A stretch of 33,235 bases of DNA from Candidatus Aenigmatarchaeota archaeon. GTDB lineage: Archaea > Aenigmatarchaeota > Aenigmatarchaeia > GW2011-AR5 > JACRMX01. Shown here one piece after another: positions 592 to 27,940 of this stretch (positions are counted from its first letter, which is position 1; every line of letters starts with the position of its first letter). Made by a program: the position numbers and the translations under genes. The notes below the pieces were generated by a model, which ran no database searches, was not told where the DNA came from, and saw only the letters and a list, made by a program, of their open reading frames with translations. The stretch is from positions 1 through 33,235 of the forward strand of contig JACRMX010000035.1 of NCBI GenBank assembly GCA_016219485.1, written 5' to 3'.

Positions 592-784
592 GATAGTTTT
601 GAAAAACCATTAGTTGGCAGACAATTGAACAAATATTATTAGAAAGTTTTTTCTGCTTTCCCCTCGATACATTGGGAAAAACTTCATTTTTCCCATGCAT
701 AGAAATTCCGAAGGAATTTCTAATGTTTAGGGGGAAAGAGAAAAAATCGCATATGACTGGAAAAATGTGGTTTTTCAAAGTCCT
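592..784 (+). repeat. Long inverted-repeat element, copy 1 (loop contains a 56-nt insertion)
   Basis: AGTTTTGAAAAACC ... GTTTTTTCTGCTTTCCCCTCGATA[insert]TTTAGGGGGAAAGAGAAAAAATCG ... GGTTTTTCAAAGTC; matches copies at 1347, 10428 and 27799. Confidence 0.8.
670..725 (+). repeat. Twin-hairpin mini-element A, nested in loop of long element copy 1
   Basis: CATT-[TGGGAAAAA cttca TTTTTCCCA]-TGCATA-[GAAATTCC gaa GGAATTTC]-TAATG; absent from the loops of the other three long-element copies. Confidence 0.7.
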
Positions 785-9133: not shown

Positions 9134-9206
9134 GGCTGTGTTGATGTAACGGCTAGCATAAGGGACTGTGGATCCCTTCGTCTGGGTTCGAATCCCAGGC
9201 ACGGCC
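9134..9206 (+). tRNA. tRNA-His (GTG), no intron
   Basis: Anticodon arm AGGGA CTGTGGA TCCCT; T arm CTGGG TTCGAAT CCCAG; G-1:C73 pair encoded. Confidence 0.95.
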
Positions 9207-9209
9207 CTC

Positions 9210-10427: not shown

Positions 10428-10560
10428 CGGGAGTTTTGAAAGATCCTATCATTTAGCTTGAAGAGAATTGAAGAGTTCTTAAGGAATTTGCTTGTATTGT
10501 TAGAAGGGTTTTTTCTCCTTCCCCTCGATATTTAGGGGAAAGAGAAAAAACCGGTTTTGT
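10428..10560 (+). repeat. Long inverted-repeat element, copy 3 (diverged arms)
   Basis: GGGAGTTTTGAAAGATCCTATC...GGGTTTTTTCTCCTTCCCCTCGATATTTAGGGGAAAGAGAAAAAACCGG. Confidence 0.75.
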
Positions 10561-10876: not shown

Positions 10877-11011
10877 ATGATTAATATGTTAATTCATCTT
10901 TTTGGATTATATAAAACGAGAAAAGGTTACTCAAAAGGACAAATTAATGTAGTTATAATAATTATCTTATTTTTATTGCTTCTCTTATTTATTTTGACAA
11001 GTAGACGATAA
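10877..11011 (+). CDS. Tiny putative single-TM protein (44 aa), possibly truncated by the IS
   Basis: MINMLIHLFGLYKTRKGYSKGQINVVIIIILFLLLLFILTSRR; 3' end overlaps the transposase 3' end. Confidence 0.3.
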   Translation: MINMLIHLFGLYKTRKGYSKGQINVVIIIILFLLLLLFILTSRR

Positions 11012-11914
11012 TTTTATTTTGCTTCTATAAATCAAATTCAACCATTTCTCTTTGCCTAAATTAAGCTCTACTCCAGCCTTCTGTGCAGGTATCATATCTA
11101 TGCCCTGATGCACCCGCAGAAAGTTATACCATATAACAAACATCTCCAAAATTTGCTCTGCTGATTTGGAATTCTTGAAGCCACGCATAACTTTAACCCG
11201 TTCTCTGATAGTTCCCTGTATGCGTTCTATCATGTTGTTGCGGTAATCGTGCCTATCAATTATGCGGATATGCTGGACATTATCTTTTGGCACCCTGTTA
11301 GAATACCAAGTTTTAGGTATGGTGTTCATGTAAGCAGGTAATCCATCAGTAAAAACATATATAGGCTTTTCTGCTCTTTGTCTGGTTTTTCTGAATAAAC
11401 CCTTAGCACCATCCAATCCCTTTTCTTTGGCATAATGTGTAGCGACCAGAAACCTTGTTTCTTTGTCTATCAAAGCAAAAAGGTAGTGTTGTTCTTTGTT
11501 ACATTTGATATATATTTCGTCAGCATGATAAACACCCGAAAGGCTGAGATTTAACGAGCTGATGAAAGGCTTTATTGTCATAACGTATCTGCGTATCCAT
11601 CTCAGAATACTCATGTGGCTTACTTCTTTATCACTGAATTGATTTACATGAGTTGCCACTTTTCTCAAACTCATGCCATTCATGTAGAGGTCAAGACATG
11701 CTGTTATCATTTCACGCTTCTTTTTGCATTTCATGAAGCCATCATCAACCACGAAGGTTTCCTTACAGTTGTTGCACTTGTATCTTCTCTTCTTTGTTGT
11801 GCAGTTGTAACGAAAACCCCATCTTATTTATTATTTCTTCACTTTGACATTTCGGACACTTCTCTGGTGCAAAATAGCTTTCGTCTTTATAACCTCTTTT
11901 TGTTTTAGTTTTCA
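10985..11914 (-). mobile_element. Insertion sequence with DDE transposase (zinc-ribbon N-terminus), frameshifted
   Basis: ORF 10985..11752 carries the DDE core (GVYHADEIYIKCNKEQHYLFALIDKETRFLVATHY...DRHDYRNNMIERIQGTIRERVKVMRGF); upstream MKTKTKRGYKDESYFAPEKCPKC joins it only after a 1-nt shift near 11814-11822; no terminal inverted repeats identified. Confidence 0.85.
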
Positions 11915-11930
11915 TGTTTAACATTTCTAT

Positions 11931-11992
11931 TGTATTAATGTATTAGTTAATACATACATACGAAACTTTAAATACTTTACTACAGTAATACA
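11931..11992. promoter_or_regulatory. Putative RHH operator: four TAATACA heptamers around a TATA box
   Basis: TGTATTA at 11931 and 11939, TAATACA at 11948 and 11986; TTTAAATAC TATA-like box at about 11967. Confidence 0.5.
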
Positions 11993-11997
11993 TTACT

Positions 11998-12153
11998 ATG
12001 TCAGAGGCTAATTCTAACAACAGGGAAACAACAAGCATACGTATTGACCCAAAGCTGTGGAAAGAGGCAAAAATGAAGGCATTAGAAAAAGACATGAGTA
12101 TTGGTCAATACATCGAAGAATTGATAATTAAGGATGTCAAGAACAAGAAGTGA
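11998..12153 (+). CDS. Ribbon-helix-helix (CopG/Arc-like) regulator, 51 aa
   Basis: MSEANSNNRETTSIRIDPKLWKEAKMKALEKDMSIGQYIEELIIKDVKNKK; just upstream of the methyltransferase; below ORF-track length cutoff. Confidence 0.75.
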   Translation: MSEANSNNRETTSIRIDPKLWKEAKMKALEKDMSIGQYIEELIIKDVKNKK

Positions 12154-12158
12154 TATGA

Positions 12159-13064
12159 ATGAAAGAGATACATTTAGATGACAAAGTGAAATTATACTAT
12201 GGTGATGTTTTTGAATGTTTAGAAATCCTGCCCAAAAATACTATTCAAACTATCATAACAAGCCCAACATATTGGGGGAAACGCCAGTTTACAAATGATG
12301 AAAGAGAATTTGGAAAAGAATCACTCGAACAATACATTCATAGATGCGTCAGTCTATTTAGCAATCTTCTTGATTTAATCAAGGAAAACGGTTCTCTGTT
12401 TTTTATAATGCAAGATTCACGCATGGGAAGTGGAATTTCAAGGACACAACATTTTAGCGATAAGTTTTTTCGGGAGCATCCATCATGGAAACGCAATGGT
12501 AATTCTAAAGAAGTACATGGCAACAGAAGTAAGGTAACGGCACATCATAATATTATTAAAAATACTTCATGGTGTGGCATCCCTTTCAAAATTGCTAACG
12601 AACTCGTGGATAAAGGCTATATATGGCGTGATTACATAATTTGGGAAAAACCTAATCCAATGCCAGACAAAATAGTAAATCGAGTACGCCAATCTGCCGA
12701 ATATGTCTTTCACTTTGTCAAAAACAAATCTTACAAATACAATCCTAAAGAGATTTCCGTTATTGGAAAGAGTGGGCGTCCTCGACCCATGAATCAAGTA
12801 TGGACAGAAGCACCAAATCCAGAGGTTTCACATTCGGCTACGTTTTCCCCTGTAGTAGTTGAACGTCTTTTGAAAGCTACCACTGATATTGGAGATTGGG
12901 TATTCGACCCTTTCGTGGGTTCAGGAACGCTTCTAAAGTTATGCTTAAAAAACGACAGACGTTTTATTGGATGTGATATTAATTCAGAATTCACAAGAGT
13001 ATGCAAGAGAATTATTACTTCTTATCAGCCTTTAAGGATTTATTCCCATCTTTCAGACCATTGA
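12159..13064 (+). CDS. DNA methyltransferase (beta-class, N4-cytosine or N6-adenine)
   Basis: Motif IV-like TSPTYWGKRQF; motif I DPFVGSGTLLKLCL. Confidence 0.9.
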   Translation: MKEIHLDDKVKLYYGDVFECLEILPKNTIQTIITSPTYWGKRQFTNDEREFGKESLEQYIHRCVSLFSNLLDLIKENGSLFFIMQDSRMGSGISRTQHFSDKFFREHPSWKRNGNSKEVHGNRSKVTAHHNIIKNTSWCGIPFKIANELVDKGYIWRDYIIWEKPNPMPDKIVNRVRQSAEYVFHFVKNKSYKYNPKEISVIGKSGRPRPMNQVWTEAPNPEVSHSATFSPVVVERLLKATTDIGDWVFDPFVGSGTLLKLCLKNDRRFIGCDINSEFTRVCKRIITSYQPLRIYSHLSDH

Positions 13065-13827
13065 TATATTTTGTCAATATTTGTTTCACATAGTTTGGCA
13101 TAAGGATGTGTTTCTTTCTGGCAATGATTTTCAAATTATCATAATCTGATACAAAATGCCCTTTCCAAACAATAGCAAGACGGCGGATGTTTTCTGTAGC
13201 TATATGTTGATGATTTTCAGGACTTGCCCAGTAACAGGTTTTGCAAACATTAGGTTTCTTGCCTTTCCAATTTGAGCAATGCTCACATGACCAAGATTTT
13301 GCCCGATTACAAGATGCACATAATGGCATGAACTCGTCAATTTTTAAAGTTGCAGGCTCACCGCTAATTTCATATGGTATTTTATGGTCAATCTGTAGGT
13401 ATCGTTCTTCATACTGTTGTAAACAAATACTGCAACGAACACCAGCAGAACGAATAACATCTTCCTTGAATTGTTTTGAGAACATTTTTCTTCCTGCAAG
13501 TGTTCCAAGATGCATACTTTCTGGATTTGCAAATCTATATCCGCTTATTTTTCTTCCATCAGAACTCGTTACACGAAACGATTCTATAGGAATTCCAAGT
13601 TCTCTAACATCTCGTATAGCTCTTGATGTATGTCGATAACCATATTTGTTTTGCAAATCATCTGACGTTATTTGACCGTGCTTTAGAATATGGTCTATTA
13701 CTGTCTTTGCTCTTTTTGCTGTAATAGATTTGGCTCGTGCCAGAAGTTTAGAAGTCCAGCCTTCTGGAACATGTGTAGCCTCTTCCTTTCTCATACTTTT
13801 TATTGTTTTCAGACACTTTAATACCAA
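13015..13827 (-). CDS. HNH nuclease, probable type II restriction endonuclease partner
   Basis: RCSICLQQYEERYLQIDHKIPYEISG...MPLCASCNRAKSWSCEHCSNW; convergent with methyltransferase, 50-nt 3' overlap. Confidence 0.85.
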   Translation of the reverse strand: MVLKCLKTIKSMRKEEATHVPEGWTSKLLARAKSITAKRAKTVIDHILKHGQITSDDLQNKYGYRHTSRAIRDVRELGIPIESFRVTSSDGRKISGYRFANPESMHLGTLAGRKMFSKQFKEDVIRSAGVRCSICLQQYEERYLQIDHKIPYEISGEPATLKIDEFMPLCASCNRAKSWSCEHCSNWKGKKPNVCKTCYWASPENHQHIATENIRRLAIVWKGHFVSDYDNLKIIARKKHILMPNYVKQILTKYINGLKDGNKSLKADKK

Positions 13828-16216: not shown

Positions 16217-16558
16217 ATGTACAAGCAGGTCATTGTTATAAGGTCAGGCCTTAAAATGAGCAAAGGAAAAACAGCTGTTCAGGCTTGCCACGCGTGCATT
16301 GGCGCTGCGGAAAAAACCAGCAGAATCATCCTTTCTGCATGGAGGCGGGAAGGCCAGAAAAAAGTTGTTGTGGAAGCTTCCCTTGAAGCTATGCATAGGC
16401 TAAAGGAGAAGGCTGACAAGCTAAAAATCAAGAGCTATATGGTTGCTGATGCAGGGCTGACCGAGCTGGCCCCTGGGACGATAACAGCTATTGCCATAGG
16501 TCCTGACAAGGAAGAAAAGATAAATAAAGTGACTGGTTCTCTGCCTCTGGTGAGATAA
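16217..16558 (+). CDS. pth2: Peptidyl-tRNA hydrolase type 2
   Basis: MYKQVIVIRSGLKMSKGKTAVQACHACIG...DAGLTELAPGTITAIAIGP. Confidence 0.95.
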   Translation: MYKQVIVIRSGLKMSKGKTAVQACHACIGAAEKTSRIILSAWRREGQKKVVVEASLEAMHRLKEKADKLKIKSYMVADAGLTELAPGTITAIAIGPDKEEKINKVTGSLPLVR

Positions 16559-17314
16559 TGTTTTCAGGAAAGCTTACGAAGCCTGAGGATTTTATTGTCA
16601 GGGAAATCCTCGACGAAAGATTTTCAAGAAAATACAGAAGGACATGCAAAGGCGTGGAAAAAATGTGCGGAGAGCATTCCCTGTACTTGCTGCAAAAGAA
16701 AAATATGAATACAAGAGATGCGATCAACCTCATTGCAAAAAAACTCTGCATAAGCAGGGGCGCTATCGGGTATGCGGGCTTAAAGGACAAAAATGCTGTC
16801 AGTTATCAGTATATTACGATAAGCAAAGGCCCGGAAAAAAACCTTTCATTCAGGGACATCGCGCTTACTTTTATGCGCAGCATTGACCGAAGACTCGGCC
16901 GCGGCGATCTGATAGGCAATGAATTCGAAATAACGCTGCACAACTGCAGGAATGTGCAGGAGCTTCCTGAAAAAATAAAAAAAATCAGGCAGGGAATACC
17001 AAATTTCTTCGGACCCCAGCGCTTTGGAGTTCTCAAAAACAATCATATAAAGGGGCGGATGATAATCCACAGGAGAAAACTCCCTGAAAATATGGGAAAG
17101 GAGGATAAGCGAGCTCAGCATAATGTGCAAAGGAGGCGTAAGACAGTCGGTAATAAGGCCGGATGTGAGCTACAAAATTACAGGGGACAACGTCTTTCTT
17201 CATTTTTCACTGCCCAAAGGTTCCTACGCTACTGTTGTATTGAATGCAATCGGCACAGTCGATAGTTCAGAGATCAGGAAAGTTTCGGTTAGCTGCAATT
17301 TGGCTTCAAATTAA
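16558..17314 (+). pseudogene. truD: TruD tRNA pseudouridine synthase, internally deleted and frameshifted
   Basis: N-terminal part in frame 1 (GYAGLKDKNAVSYQYITI, FFGPQRFGV); C-terminal part in frame 2 (VSYKITGDNVFLHFSLPKGSYATVVLNAIG); central TRUD domain missing. Confidence 0.8.
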
Positions 17315-17344
17315 ATTTATATACCTTGATAGTATCATTTTTTT

Positions 17345-17587
17345 ATGTACGAATACGTAATTGGAGTTTGTAGAACAGAAGATATCTCTTCTCAAAATCA
17401 ATATTGGGATTTATCCAGGCAACATCATGGAACGGGTTTTCCAGATTCACAACGTGATGGTGAACTTATTGGTCAATATCTCACAGTTTTTATTAGTTCT
17501 GAAAAACCCTTGACTTTGGAAGAACTTCAGAAAAAATTCCCATCTATATCTATAGTAGGATTCAGACCATACTCCTTGTATTCCTAG
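17345..17587 (+). CDS. Hypothetical protein, 80 aa
   Basis: ORF preceded by TATA-like TTTATATACC about 26 nt upstream. Confidence 0.45.
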   Translation: MYEYVIGVCRTEDISSQNQYWDLSRQHHGTGFPDSQRDGELIGQYLTVFISSEKPLTLEELQKKFPSISIVGFRPYSLYS

Positions 17588-21408: not shown

Positions 21409-21611
21409 TGCGAGAGGCAGGATTTGAACCTGCGAACGGACTAACCGACAGGATTTCTCTTTCACTCCAGCTCTGCTGGTCAACACTCAAGTAGATAGCG
21501 CCTTCAGGAAGTTTCTCTTTCGTCCAAACCGACAACCTTCGGTTGTCAATTCGCTTTAAAGAGAAAAGGGTTACTTGAGTCCTGCGCCTTTGACCGCTTG
21601 GCTACTCTCGC
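21409..21611 (-). tRNA. tRNA-Leu (CAA) with ~119-nt intron at 37/38 (intron 21455..21573)
   Basis: Acceptor GCGAGAG/CTCTCGC, D arm GCC..GGC, anticodon stem CAGGA/TCCTG, T arm GCAGG TTCAAAT CCTGC; spliced length 84 nt. Confidence 0.85.
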
Positions 21612-22209: not shown

Positions 22210-22312
22210 TGCGGTGGCCGAGATATGCGGCAGGCATAAACTATATGCCGGCTTTCGAACTCGGGTCTCAACCGTGGCAGGGTTGTGTCCTAACCAGCTA
22301 GACTACCACCGC
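22210..22312 (-). tRNA. tRNA-Gly (GCC) with 30-nt T-loop intron (22224..22253, position 59/60)
   Basis: Acceptor GCGGTGG/CCACCGC; anticodon arm CAACC CTGCCAC GGTTG; T arm CCGAG TTCGAA[30 nt]T CTCGG; spliced 73 nt. Confidence 0.92.
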
Positions 22313-23053: not shown

Positions 23054-23338
23054 TTTCTAATCCTCCATTATTTATCTAGCGTATTGCTGTTACGCCTAAC
23101 TATGGATATATATAATTACCTGATGGCCCCTTTATAAAGATTTTTTCTAGGACGCAGTACGATAAAATACGCGGAAACAGTATTCGAACCTCTGTGTCGG
23201 CTGATGCCTCCAACGGTTCAAATCCTGCACTTATAGCAATACAAGGAAATAAACAGTATATTACTTCCTTGTTTGCTATATGTGAAACAAGTTGTATAAT
23301 GTCCAAATTCTTTACTTGTTTCACTATAAACTTAATAG

Positions 23339-23514
23339 CGCCGGAAGCAGGATTCGAACCTGCGCTTCCATCCGACTGGCGCAGAGTCGCTTGACGAGCA
23401 AAGCTCGTCGGTTTTTCTCGTTGCGCCAAGGTTTCGGAAACCAGTTTTCGAGACTGGCGCGTTTAACCTGATCGCGGCTGCCTGTTTTTTCAGCACAGTC
23501 TCCGCCATTCCGGC
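23339..23514 (-). tRNA. tRNA-Ser (CGA) with two introns: D-loop 28 nt (23472..23499) and variable arm 62 nt (23370..23431)
   Basis: Acceptor GCCGGAA/TTCCGGC, anticodon arm CCAGT CTCGAAA ACTGG, T arm GCAGG TTCGAAT CCTGC; spliced 86 nt, same as the neighbouring Ser(UGA). Confidence 0.92.
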
Positions 23515-23572: not shown

Positions 23573-23721
23573 CGCCGGGAGCAGGATTTTCGGGCATATC
23601 TTTTCTTCTTTCCCAGGGGTTTCTTCTTTTTCTAAAAGAAGAAAGGCCTTTCGAACCTGCGCACCCCGAAGGGTACCAGCTCTCAAGGCTGGCGCGTTTA
23701 ACCAAGCTCCGCCATCCCGGC
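23573..23721 (-). tRNA. tRNA-Ser (TGA) with 63-nt T-loop intron (23587..23649, position 59/60)
   Basis: Acceptor GCCGGGA/TCCCGGC, anticodon arm CCAGC CTTGAGA GCTGG, T arm GCAGG TTCGAA[63 nt]T CCTGC; spliced 86 nt. Confidence 0.93.
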
Positions 23722-27798: not shown

Positions 27799-27940
27799 AC
27801 GAGAGTTTTGAAAAACCCTATCTCGTAAACAAGCTGAATATAGATTTTGTCAGAACGTTTTTTTCTGCTTTCCCCTCAATTATTAGGGGAAAGAGAAAAA
27901 AACCGTATGTAATTGGAAGAACAGGAGTTTTTCAAAGTCT
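27799..27940 (+). repeat. Long inverted-repeat element, copy 4
   Basis: GAGAGTTTTGAAAAACCCTATCTCGTAAACAA...ACGTTTTTTTCTGCTTTCCCCTCAATTATTAGGGGAAAGAGAAAAAAACCG...GAGTTTTTCAAAGTC. Confidence 0.85.

What the first reader, a model, noticed from the sequence alone, without database searches (positions are those of the whole stretch)
23339..23514. tRNA-Ser(CGA) interrupted by two non-canonical introns, one in the D-loop and one in the variable arm
Minus strand reads GCCGGAATGGCGGAG|ACTGTGCTGAAAAAACAGGCAGCCGCGA|TCAGGTTAAACGCGCCAGTCTCGAAAACTGGTTTCCGAAA|CCTTGGCGCA...CAGTCGGAT|GGAAGCGCAGGTTCGAATCCTGCTTCCGGCG. Bulge-helix-bulge motifs can be drawn at both sites: central helix GCGG/CCGC with bulges AGA/GAT, and CCGA/TCGG with bulges AAC/ATG. 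Cutting after the second bulge base gives introns of 28 and 62 nt. The mature tRNA is then 86 nt, the same as Ser(UGA) next door, with a matching 13-nt D-loop and a TTCC-GAAA-GGAA variable arm. The anticodon loop itself is uninterrupted. Non-canonical archaeal tRNA introns are known, mainly from Thermoproteales and some reduced lineages; two outside the anticodon in one tRNA is unusual.
Basis: partly seen in the sequence, partly recalled or inferred. Interest (0 to 1): 0.88.

Follow-up and report, generated by a model that had tools for sequence, protein, structure and literature searches.

The report
Twice-interrupted serine tRNA gene (archaeal)
A serine tRNA gene in an uncultured, tiny-genome archaeon is broken by two removable inserts outside the usual place, and almost every other tRNA gene found in this genome is interrupted too, by insert sequences that recur at different sites and resemble repeats scattered through the genome.

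Summary
Minus strand 23514-23339 is tRNA-Ser(CGA) with a 28-nt insert in the D loop (after nt 15) and a 62-nt insert in the variable arm (after nt 55). Both sit on strict 3-4-3 bulge-helix-bulge (BHB) motifs; none of 20,000 shuffles of the inserts gave both motifs as good. ARAGORN sees a tRNA only in the 86-nt spliced product. No uninterrupted copy is in the assembly, and a relative has the same variable arm without a break. The locus is not exceptional in its genome: of 19 tRNA genes I could read, 18 are interrupted (about 31 introns, 23-24 outside the anticodon loop; only tRNA-His is whole), about 1.6 per gene, similar to the published record (Pyrobaculum calidifontis, 71 in 46). Introns recur by sequence in different tRNAs and positions. 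Several carry a palindrome dispersed in this genome and its nearest relative but not seen in 11 other genomes of the order. The host groups with Aenigmatarchaeota/DPANN in a one-gene tree. This is a known kind (non-canonical BHB introns with intron spread, as in Thermoproteales) in an extreme, repeat-associated form. Splicing endonuclease and ligase genes were not found in this 75%-complete assembly; splicing itself is inferred.

The parts
23339..23514 (-). pre-tRNA-Ser(CGA), 176 nt
23500..23514 (-). exon 1, tRNA nt 1-15
23472..23499 (-). intron 1, 28 nt, D loop 15/16; central helix GCGG (23505-23502) / CCGC (23477-23474)
   Evidence: strict 3-4-3 BHB, 1/20,000 shuffles as good
23432..23471 (-). 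exon 2, tRNA nt 16-55, contains anticodon CGA
   Evidence: variable arm matches an uninterrupted variable arm of Ser(CGA) of genome G017, L043
23370..23431 (-). intron 2, 62 nt, variable arm 55/56; central helix CCGA (23437-23434) / TCGG (23375-23372)
   Evidence: strict 3-4-3 BHB, 42/20,000 shuffles as good
23393..23409 (.). palindrome GACGAGCAAAGCTCGTC inside intron 2, a copy of a repeat dispersed in the genome
23339..23369 (-). exon 3, tRNA nt 56-86 (rest of variable arm, T arm, acceptor 3' strand, G73)
23573..23721 (-). pre-tRNA-Ser(UGA); 63-nt intron 23587-23649 in the T loop
22210..22312 (-). pre-tRNA-Gly(GCC); 30-nt intron 22224-22253 in the T loop, central helix with one mismatch
21409..21611 (-). 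pre-tRNA-Leu(CAA); about 119-nt insert 21455-21573 at the anticodon loop (37/38), probably two introns removed one after the other
   Evidence: boundaries read by eye
9135..9207 (+). tRNA-His(GUG), the only uninterrupted tRNA gene found

Best explanation
The locus is a working tRNA-Ser(CGA) gene whose transcript carries two archaeal-type BHB introns at non-canonical positions, D loop 15/16 and variable arm 55/56. The pre-tRNA folds so that exon and intron pair into two 4-bp helices flanked by 3-nt bulges. The tRNA-splicing endonuclease (EndA) cuts after the second nucleotide of each bulge, and an RNA ligase (RtcB type) joins the exons to an 86-nt tRNA. The introns belong to a wave of intron spread in this lineage: related intron sequences, some built around a palindromic repeat dispersed in the genome, sit in different tRNA genes at a few favoured sites (T loop 59/60, D loop 15/16, anticodon loop, Ser variable arm). 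SHOWN here: sequence, motif geometry, better than shuffles, tRNA-like product, no intact copy in the assembly, uninterrupted homologous variable arm, recurrence of introns. INFERRED: transcription, cleavage, ligation, function of the product, and that copying of introns caused the recurrence.
For: Strict 3-4-3 BHBs at both junctions, 0/20,000 shuffles give both. The spliced 86-mer is ARAGORN tRNA-Ser(cga), the unspliced is nothing. The 86-mer matches the genome only as three exon pieces plus the neighbouring Ser(UGA), so no intact copy is in the assembly. Ser(CGA) of relative G017 (L043) reads CTGGCGTCCGAAAGGACTTGCAGG without a break where this gene has CCGAAA|GG, with its own intron elsewhere. 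18 of 19 readable tRNA genes are interrupted and all 19 intron-free forms are called as tRNAs by ARAGORN, Gly(CCC) with an ambiguous anticodon call. In the eight T-loop introns, the exon base R57 and the intron base it pairs with co-vary: four G with C, four A with U, no exceptions (hand count, 1/70 by chance). Related introns recur in different tRNAs and positions, E down to 1e-16. EndA found in 34/40 and RtcB in 16/20 related genomes.
Against: No RNA data. Neither EndA nor RtcB was found in this genome's assembly (75% complete); both being in the missing quarter has a probability of only about 6% if they are independent. The pre-tRNA's minimum-energy fold pairs much of the molecule differently from a cloverleaf plus BHB 1. 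BHB 2 alone is only moderately improbable (42/20,000).
Confidence: 0.91

Rival explanations
1. The locus is a pseudogene: palindromic repeats inserted into a former tRNA-Ser(CGA), and an intact copy lies in the unassembled quarter of the genome.
For: Intron 2 contains a dispersed palindrome; the assembly is 75% complete; a decayed tRNA-like fragment lies just downstream.
Against: Every stem and invariant base of the 86-mer is intact; both inserts end exactly at strict BHB motifs; 18 of 19 tRNA genes would have to be pseudogenes; exon-intron covariation in the T-loop introns.
Confidence: 0.05
2. Assembly chimaera: the inserts are misassembled repeat sequence joined into the tRNA gene.
For: The genome is a fragmented draft rich in short repeats.
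Against: Insert ends coincide with BHB cut sites; a different genome of the same family shows D-loop, anticodon and T-loop introns in its Ser tRNAs; many tRNA genes on many contigs behave alike.
Confidence: 0.02
3. Only one of the two inserts is spliced as an intron; the other stays in the mature tRNA as an enlarged D loop or an extended variable arm (the 62-nt insert can itself form a long hairpin).
For: Serine tRNAs tolerate long variable arms; in the minimum-energy fold the intron 2 hairpin stacks on the variable-arm stem.
Against: Strict BHBs at both; related Ser tRNAs have ordinary variable arms; Ser(GGA) has an insert with the same 3' end GTCGGAT|GG at the homologous site.
Confidence: 0.02

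Closest known systems
Multiple non-canonical BHB tRNA introns of Thermoproteales (Pyrobaculum calidifontis, 71 introns in 46 tRNA genes; PMC8450103, PMC4033280)
   Same: BHB introns outside 37/38, up to three per gene, comparable density
   Different: Host groups with Aenigmatarchaeota/DPANN in a one-gene tree; several introns carry a dispersed palindrome; ARAGORN finds one tRNA gene in the window and Rfam three in the genome
tRNA intron transposition in Thermoproteales (Fujishima et al. 2010, as summarised in PMC4033280)
   Same: Similar intron sequences in different tRNA species and positions
   Different: Here intron sequences also resemble repeats outside tRNA genes, one a 97% copy over 111 nt
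ARMAN-1/2 multiple-intron tRNAs with the epsilon-2 endonuclease (PMC4033280, PMC12397907)
   Same: Small-genome archaea, introns at several tRNA positions
   Different: Most genomes of this order show one EndA gene of about 190-240 aa, closest in the PDB to M. jannaschii alpha-4, not an epsilon-type gene; the own EndA is unknown
Rickettsia palindromic elements (from memory; not tested for membership)
   Same: Short palindromic repeats in RNA genes, intergenic DNA and, apparently in frame, inside ORFs
   Different: Archaeal host, unrelated sequence, part of inferred spliced introns

Membership tests
Archaeal BHB tRNA introns | Two 3-nt bulges on opposite strands separated by a 4-bp helix at the exon-intron junctions | tested here: met
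   both introns
Archaeal BHB tRNA introns | Removal restores a canonical tRNA | tested here: met
   86-nt tRNA-Ser(cga)
Archaeal BHB tRNA introns | tRNA-splicing endonuclease (EndA) encoded in the organism | tested here: inconclusive
   not in the 75% assembly, present in 34 of 40 related genomes
Archaeal BHB tRNA introns | RtcB-type ligase encoded in the organism | tested here: inconclusive
   not in the assembly, present in 16 of 20 related genomes
Archaeal BHB tRNA introns | Spliced RNA exists in the cell | not testable with these tools
   no RNA data
Non-canonical tRNA introns | Position other than 37/38 | tested here: met
   after tRNA nt 15 and 55 of the 86-nt product, D loop and variable arm
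Transposed tRNA introns (Thermoproteales type) | Similar intron sequence in different tRNAs at different positions | tested here: met
   e.g. Leu(CAA) anticodon vs Ser(GGA) D loop 91% over 55 nt; Ser(UGA) T loop vs Arg(GCG) D loop 81% over 43 nt. For Ser(CGA) itself only the palindromic core of intron 2 is shared
Group I or group II introns | Match to the ribozyme families | tested here: not met
   Rfam scan of the window reports only tRNA at gathering score; inserts of 28 and 62 nt are far too short
Split or permuted tRNA | Exons at separate loci or in permuted order | tested here: not met
   three exons in order within 176 nt

The most novel reading that the evidence does not exclude
The tRNA introns of this family descend from a short palindromic mobile element that is tolerated everywhere: in tRNAs because its ends, or its target site, form a BHB that the splicing enzyme removes, and in proteins because it stays in frame. 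This would be an ongoing source of new archaeal tRNA introns, cut by a homomeric endonuclease of a type thought to accept only canonical introns.
Probability: 0.25. Interest if true: 0.85.

Novelty: new variant of a known kind. Interest (0 to 1): 0.6.

Why it matters
Intron-rich tRNA sets were tied to hyperthermophilic Thermoproteales and a few others. An equally dense set in a DPANN-type lineage, with introns that share sequence with dispersed repeats, makes the question of how archaeal tRNA introns are gained directly testable by comparing close relatives. It also warns that tRNA counts and apparent tRNA losses in such genomes are unreliable: Rfam reports only three tRNA matches over its cut-off in this genome, and at least 19 genes are there. 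If the order really uses a single alpha-type endonuclease, the rule that such enzymes take only canonical introns needs a test.

Tried and rejected
Anchored automatic solver for the long pre-tRNAs: it gave spurious solutions (e.g. Pro read as anticodon TAA) because tens to hundreds of candidate BHBs occur per pre-tRNA, so exon limits of most other tRNAs were read by eye (plus or minus about 2 nt) and checked with ARAGORN. First named-genome scan found nothing; the second, with an alignment, gave names but no very close relative. In-frame insertion in ribosomal protein L3 was checked against solved homologues: the repeat lies in a length-variable region, so insertion is not proven. Literature searches found no report of such introns for Aenigmatarchaeota, but only open-access text is held.

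Full report
OBSERVATION. Introns are 28 and 62 nt, after tRNA nt 15 and 55, leaving 15+40+31 = 86 nt. ARAGORN calls the product tRNA-Ser(cga) and finds nothing in the unspliced gene. With exons fixed and introns shuffled (dinucleotides kept, register shifts of up to 3 allowed), BHB 1 was matched in 1 of 20,000 trials, BHB 2 in 42, both in none.

IS IT THE ONLY COPY? The 86-mer matches the genome only as the three exon pieces at this locus plus the related Ser(UGA). Rfam's tRNA model finds only three matches over its cut-off in the 650-kb assembly. The assembly is 75% complete, so a second copy cannot be excluded. In a genome of the same order, G017, Ser(CGA) (locus L043) has an uninterrupted variable arm (GTCCGAAAGGAC) where this one has CCGAAA|GG, and its single intron is elsewhere. 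The simplest reading is that both introns here were gained in this lineage (inference).

THE NEIGHBOURHOOD AND THE GENOME. In the same window Ser(UGA) has a 63-nt T-loop intron, Gly(GCC) a 30-nt T-loop intron and Leu(CAA) about 119 nt at the anticodon loop; tRNA-His is whole. Stretches around weak tRNA hits and repeats elsewhere in the genome let me read 14 more genes: Ser GCU, Ser GGA, Arg UCG, Arg GCG, Glu CUC, Glu UUC, Val UAC, Val GAC, Ile GAU, Pro CGG, Gly UCC, Gly CCC, Gln CUG and Ala GGC; total 19 with the five of the window. All but His are interrupted. I count 30 introns plus one probable one near the acceptor stem of Arg(GCG), whose 5' exon is uncertain: 13 in the D loop, 8 in the T loop, 2 in a variable arm, 7 in the anticodon loop. 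The 19 intron-free forms are all called tRNAs by ARAGORN, Gly(CCC) with an ambiguous anticodon call. About 1.6 introns per gene compares with 71 in 46 genes for Pyrobaculum calidifontis and a mean of 0.84 per gene in Thermoproteales (PMC8450103). My sample was found through tRNA-like remnants and repeats and is not unbiased.

INDEPENDENT SUPPORT FOR SPLICING. All eight T-loop introns sit at the same place, 14 nt from the tRNA 3' end, after TTCRAA (TTCGAT in Val UAC). The exon base R57 pairs with an intron base in the BHB central helix. It is G with C in Ser UGA, Gln, Val UAC and Gly GCC, and A with U in Glu CUC, Glu UUC, Ser GGA and Ala (counted by hand). A perfect 4:4 match has a chance of 1/70; shared ancestry of some introns (the two Glu are nearly identical) weakens this.

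WHERE THE INTRONS COME FROM. BLAST among the introns shows recurring sequences in different tRNAs and positions: Ser(UGA) T loop, Glu T loop, Arg(GCG) D loop, Gly(CCC) anticodon and Val(GAC) D loop form one family; Leu(CAA) anticodon, Ser(GGA) D loop and Gly(UCC) anticodon another. This is the pattern described as intron transposition in Thermoproteales (Fujishima et al. 2010, as summarised in PMC4033280). Intron 2 of Ser(CGA) shares only its palindromic core with introns of Glu, Ile and Val; its 3' end AGTCGGAT|GG is shared with the variable-arm intron of Ser(GGA). The palindrome TTGACGAGCnnnGCTCGTC has 31 hits on both strands (up to 1 mismatch; some places hit on both strands) in this genome and 9 in the same-family genome G001, none in 11 other genomes of the order, and none for the reversed control pattern. 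Copies lie in at least six tRNA introns, in intergenic DNA, and inside ORFs that stay open across them. One 111-nt stretch outside tRNA genes is 97% identical to the Ile(GAU) D-loop intron. That the repeat made the introns, rather than settling in existing ones, is not shown.

RELATIVES AND MACHINERY. Ser tRNAs of G001 (same family) carry D-loop, anticodon and T-loop introns, and genomes G021 and G028 carry large D-loop inserts in Ser(UGA) beside the same TtcA-like gene. So the intron load is a property of the wider group, while the palindrome is not. EndA is found in 34 of 40 related genomes but not in this assembly; RtcB in 16 of 20 but not here. Most genomes of the order show a single EndA gene of about 190-240 aa; G005 and G010 have a second of about 410 aa. 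The G001 protein is closest in the PDB to the M. jannaschii enzyme and to the catalytic N. equitans subunit, and like the latter it has about 6 extra Lys/Gly-rich residues between the motifs VYERG and EH, compared with M. jannaschii. Literature ties relaxed introns to heteromeric or epsilon-2 enzymes with an added loop (PMC4033280, PMC12397907). Whether this loop plays that part is a guess.

TAXON. No name is attached to the genome. A one-gene tree of the neighbouring TtcA-like protein groups it and its relatives with Aenigmatarchaeota and Nanohalarchaeota (support 97/89).

VERDICT. The kind is known; the density, the host and the link to dispersed repeats are what is new. The claim that it is spliced rests on sequence alone.

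Noticed in passing
G000 loci L048 (500), L050 (557), L052 (2217), L060 (646): Palindromes of the same type lie inside open protein frames (metallophosphoesterase-like, decarboxylase-like, aldolase-like, ribosomal protein L3; names by eye except L3), each frame staying open; resembles Rickettsia palindromic elements.
   Followed up: partly
L055 518-628: A 111-nt stretch 97% identical to the D-loop intron of tRNA-Ile(GAU), downstream of a polymerase-like ORF: an intron-like sequence outside any tRNA gene.
   Followed up: partly
window 629-690, 1384-1445, 10490-10551, 27840-27901: A second dispersed family of about 60 nt, CTTTCCCCTC...AGGGGGAAAG palindromes, apparently intergenic.
   Followed up: no
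window 16558-17587: TruD pseudouridine synthase gene is frameshifted and seems to lack its middle part; pseudogene or sequence error. TruD modifies position 13 of tRNA, in the D arm (general knowledge).
   Followed up: partly
window 23180-23240, minus strand: Degenerate tRNA-Ser-like 3' end (AGGTTCGAATACTGTTTCCGCG) just downstream of Ser(CGA), perhaps a decayed tandem copy.
   Followed up: no
G000:C31:66-142 (L020) and C31:2180 (L021): A copy of the 3' end of tRNA-Arg(GCG) (CCCGGCGGGGGCATAA) about 2 kb from the gene, like an attachment site of an integrated element.
   Followed up: no
window 10985-13827: Transposase-like ORF followed by a DNA methyltransferase-like and an HNH-endonuclease-like ORF (read by eye), possibly a mobile island.
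   Followed up: no
L026 tRNA-Val(GAC): Two introns in one D loop, with about 7 nt of exon between them; the second only about 12 nt long and shared in position with Val(UAC).
   Followed up: partly
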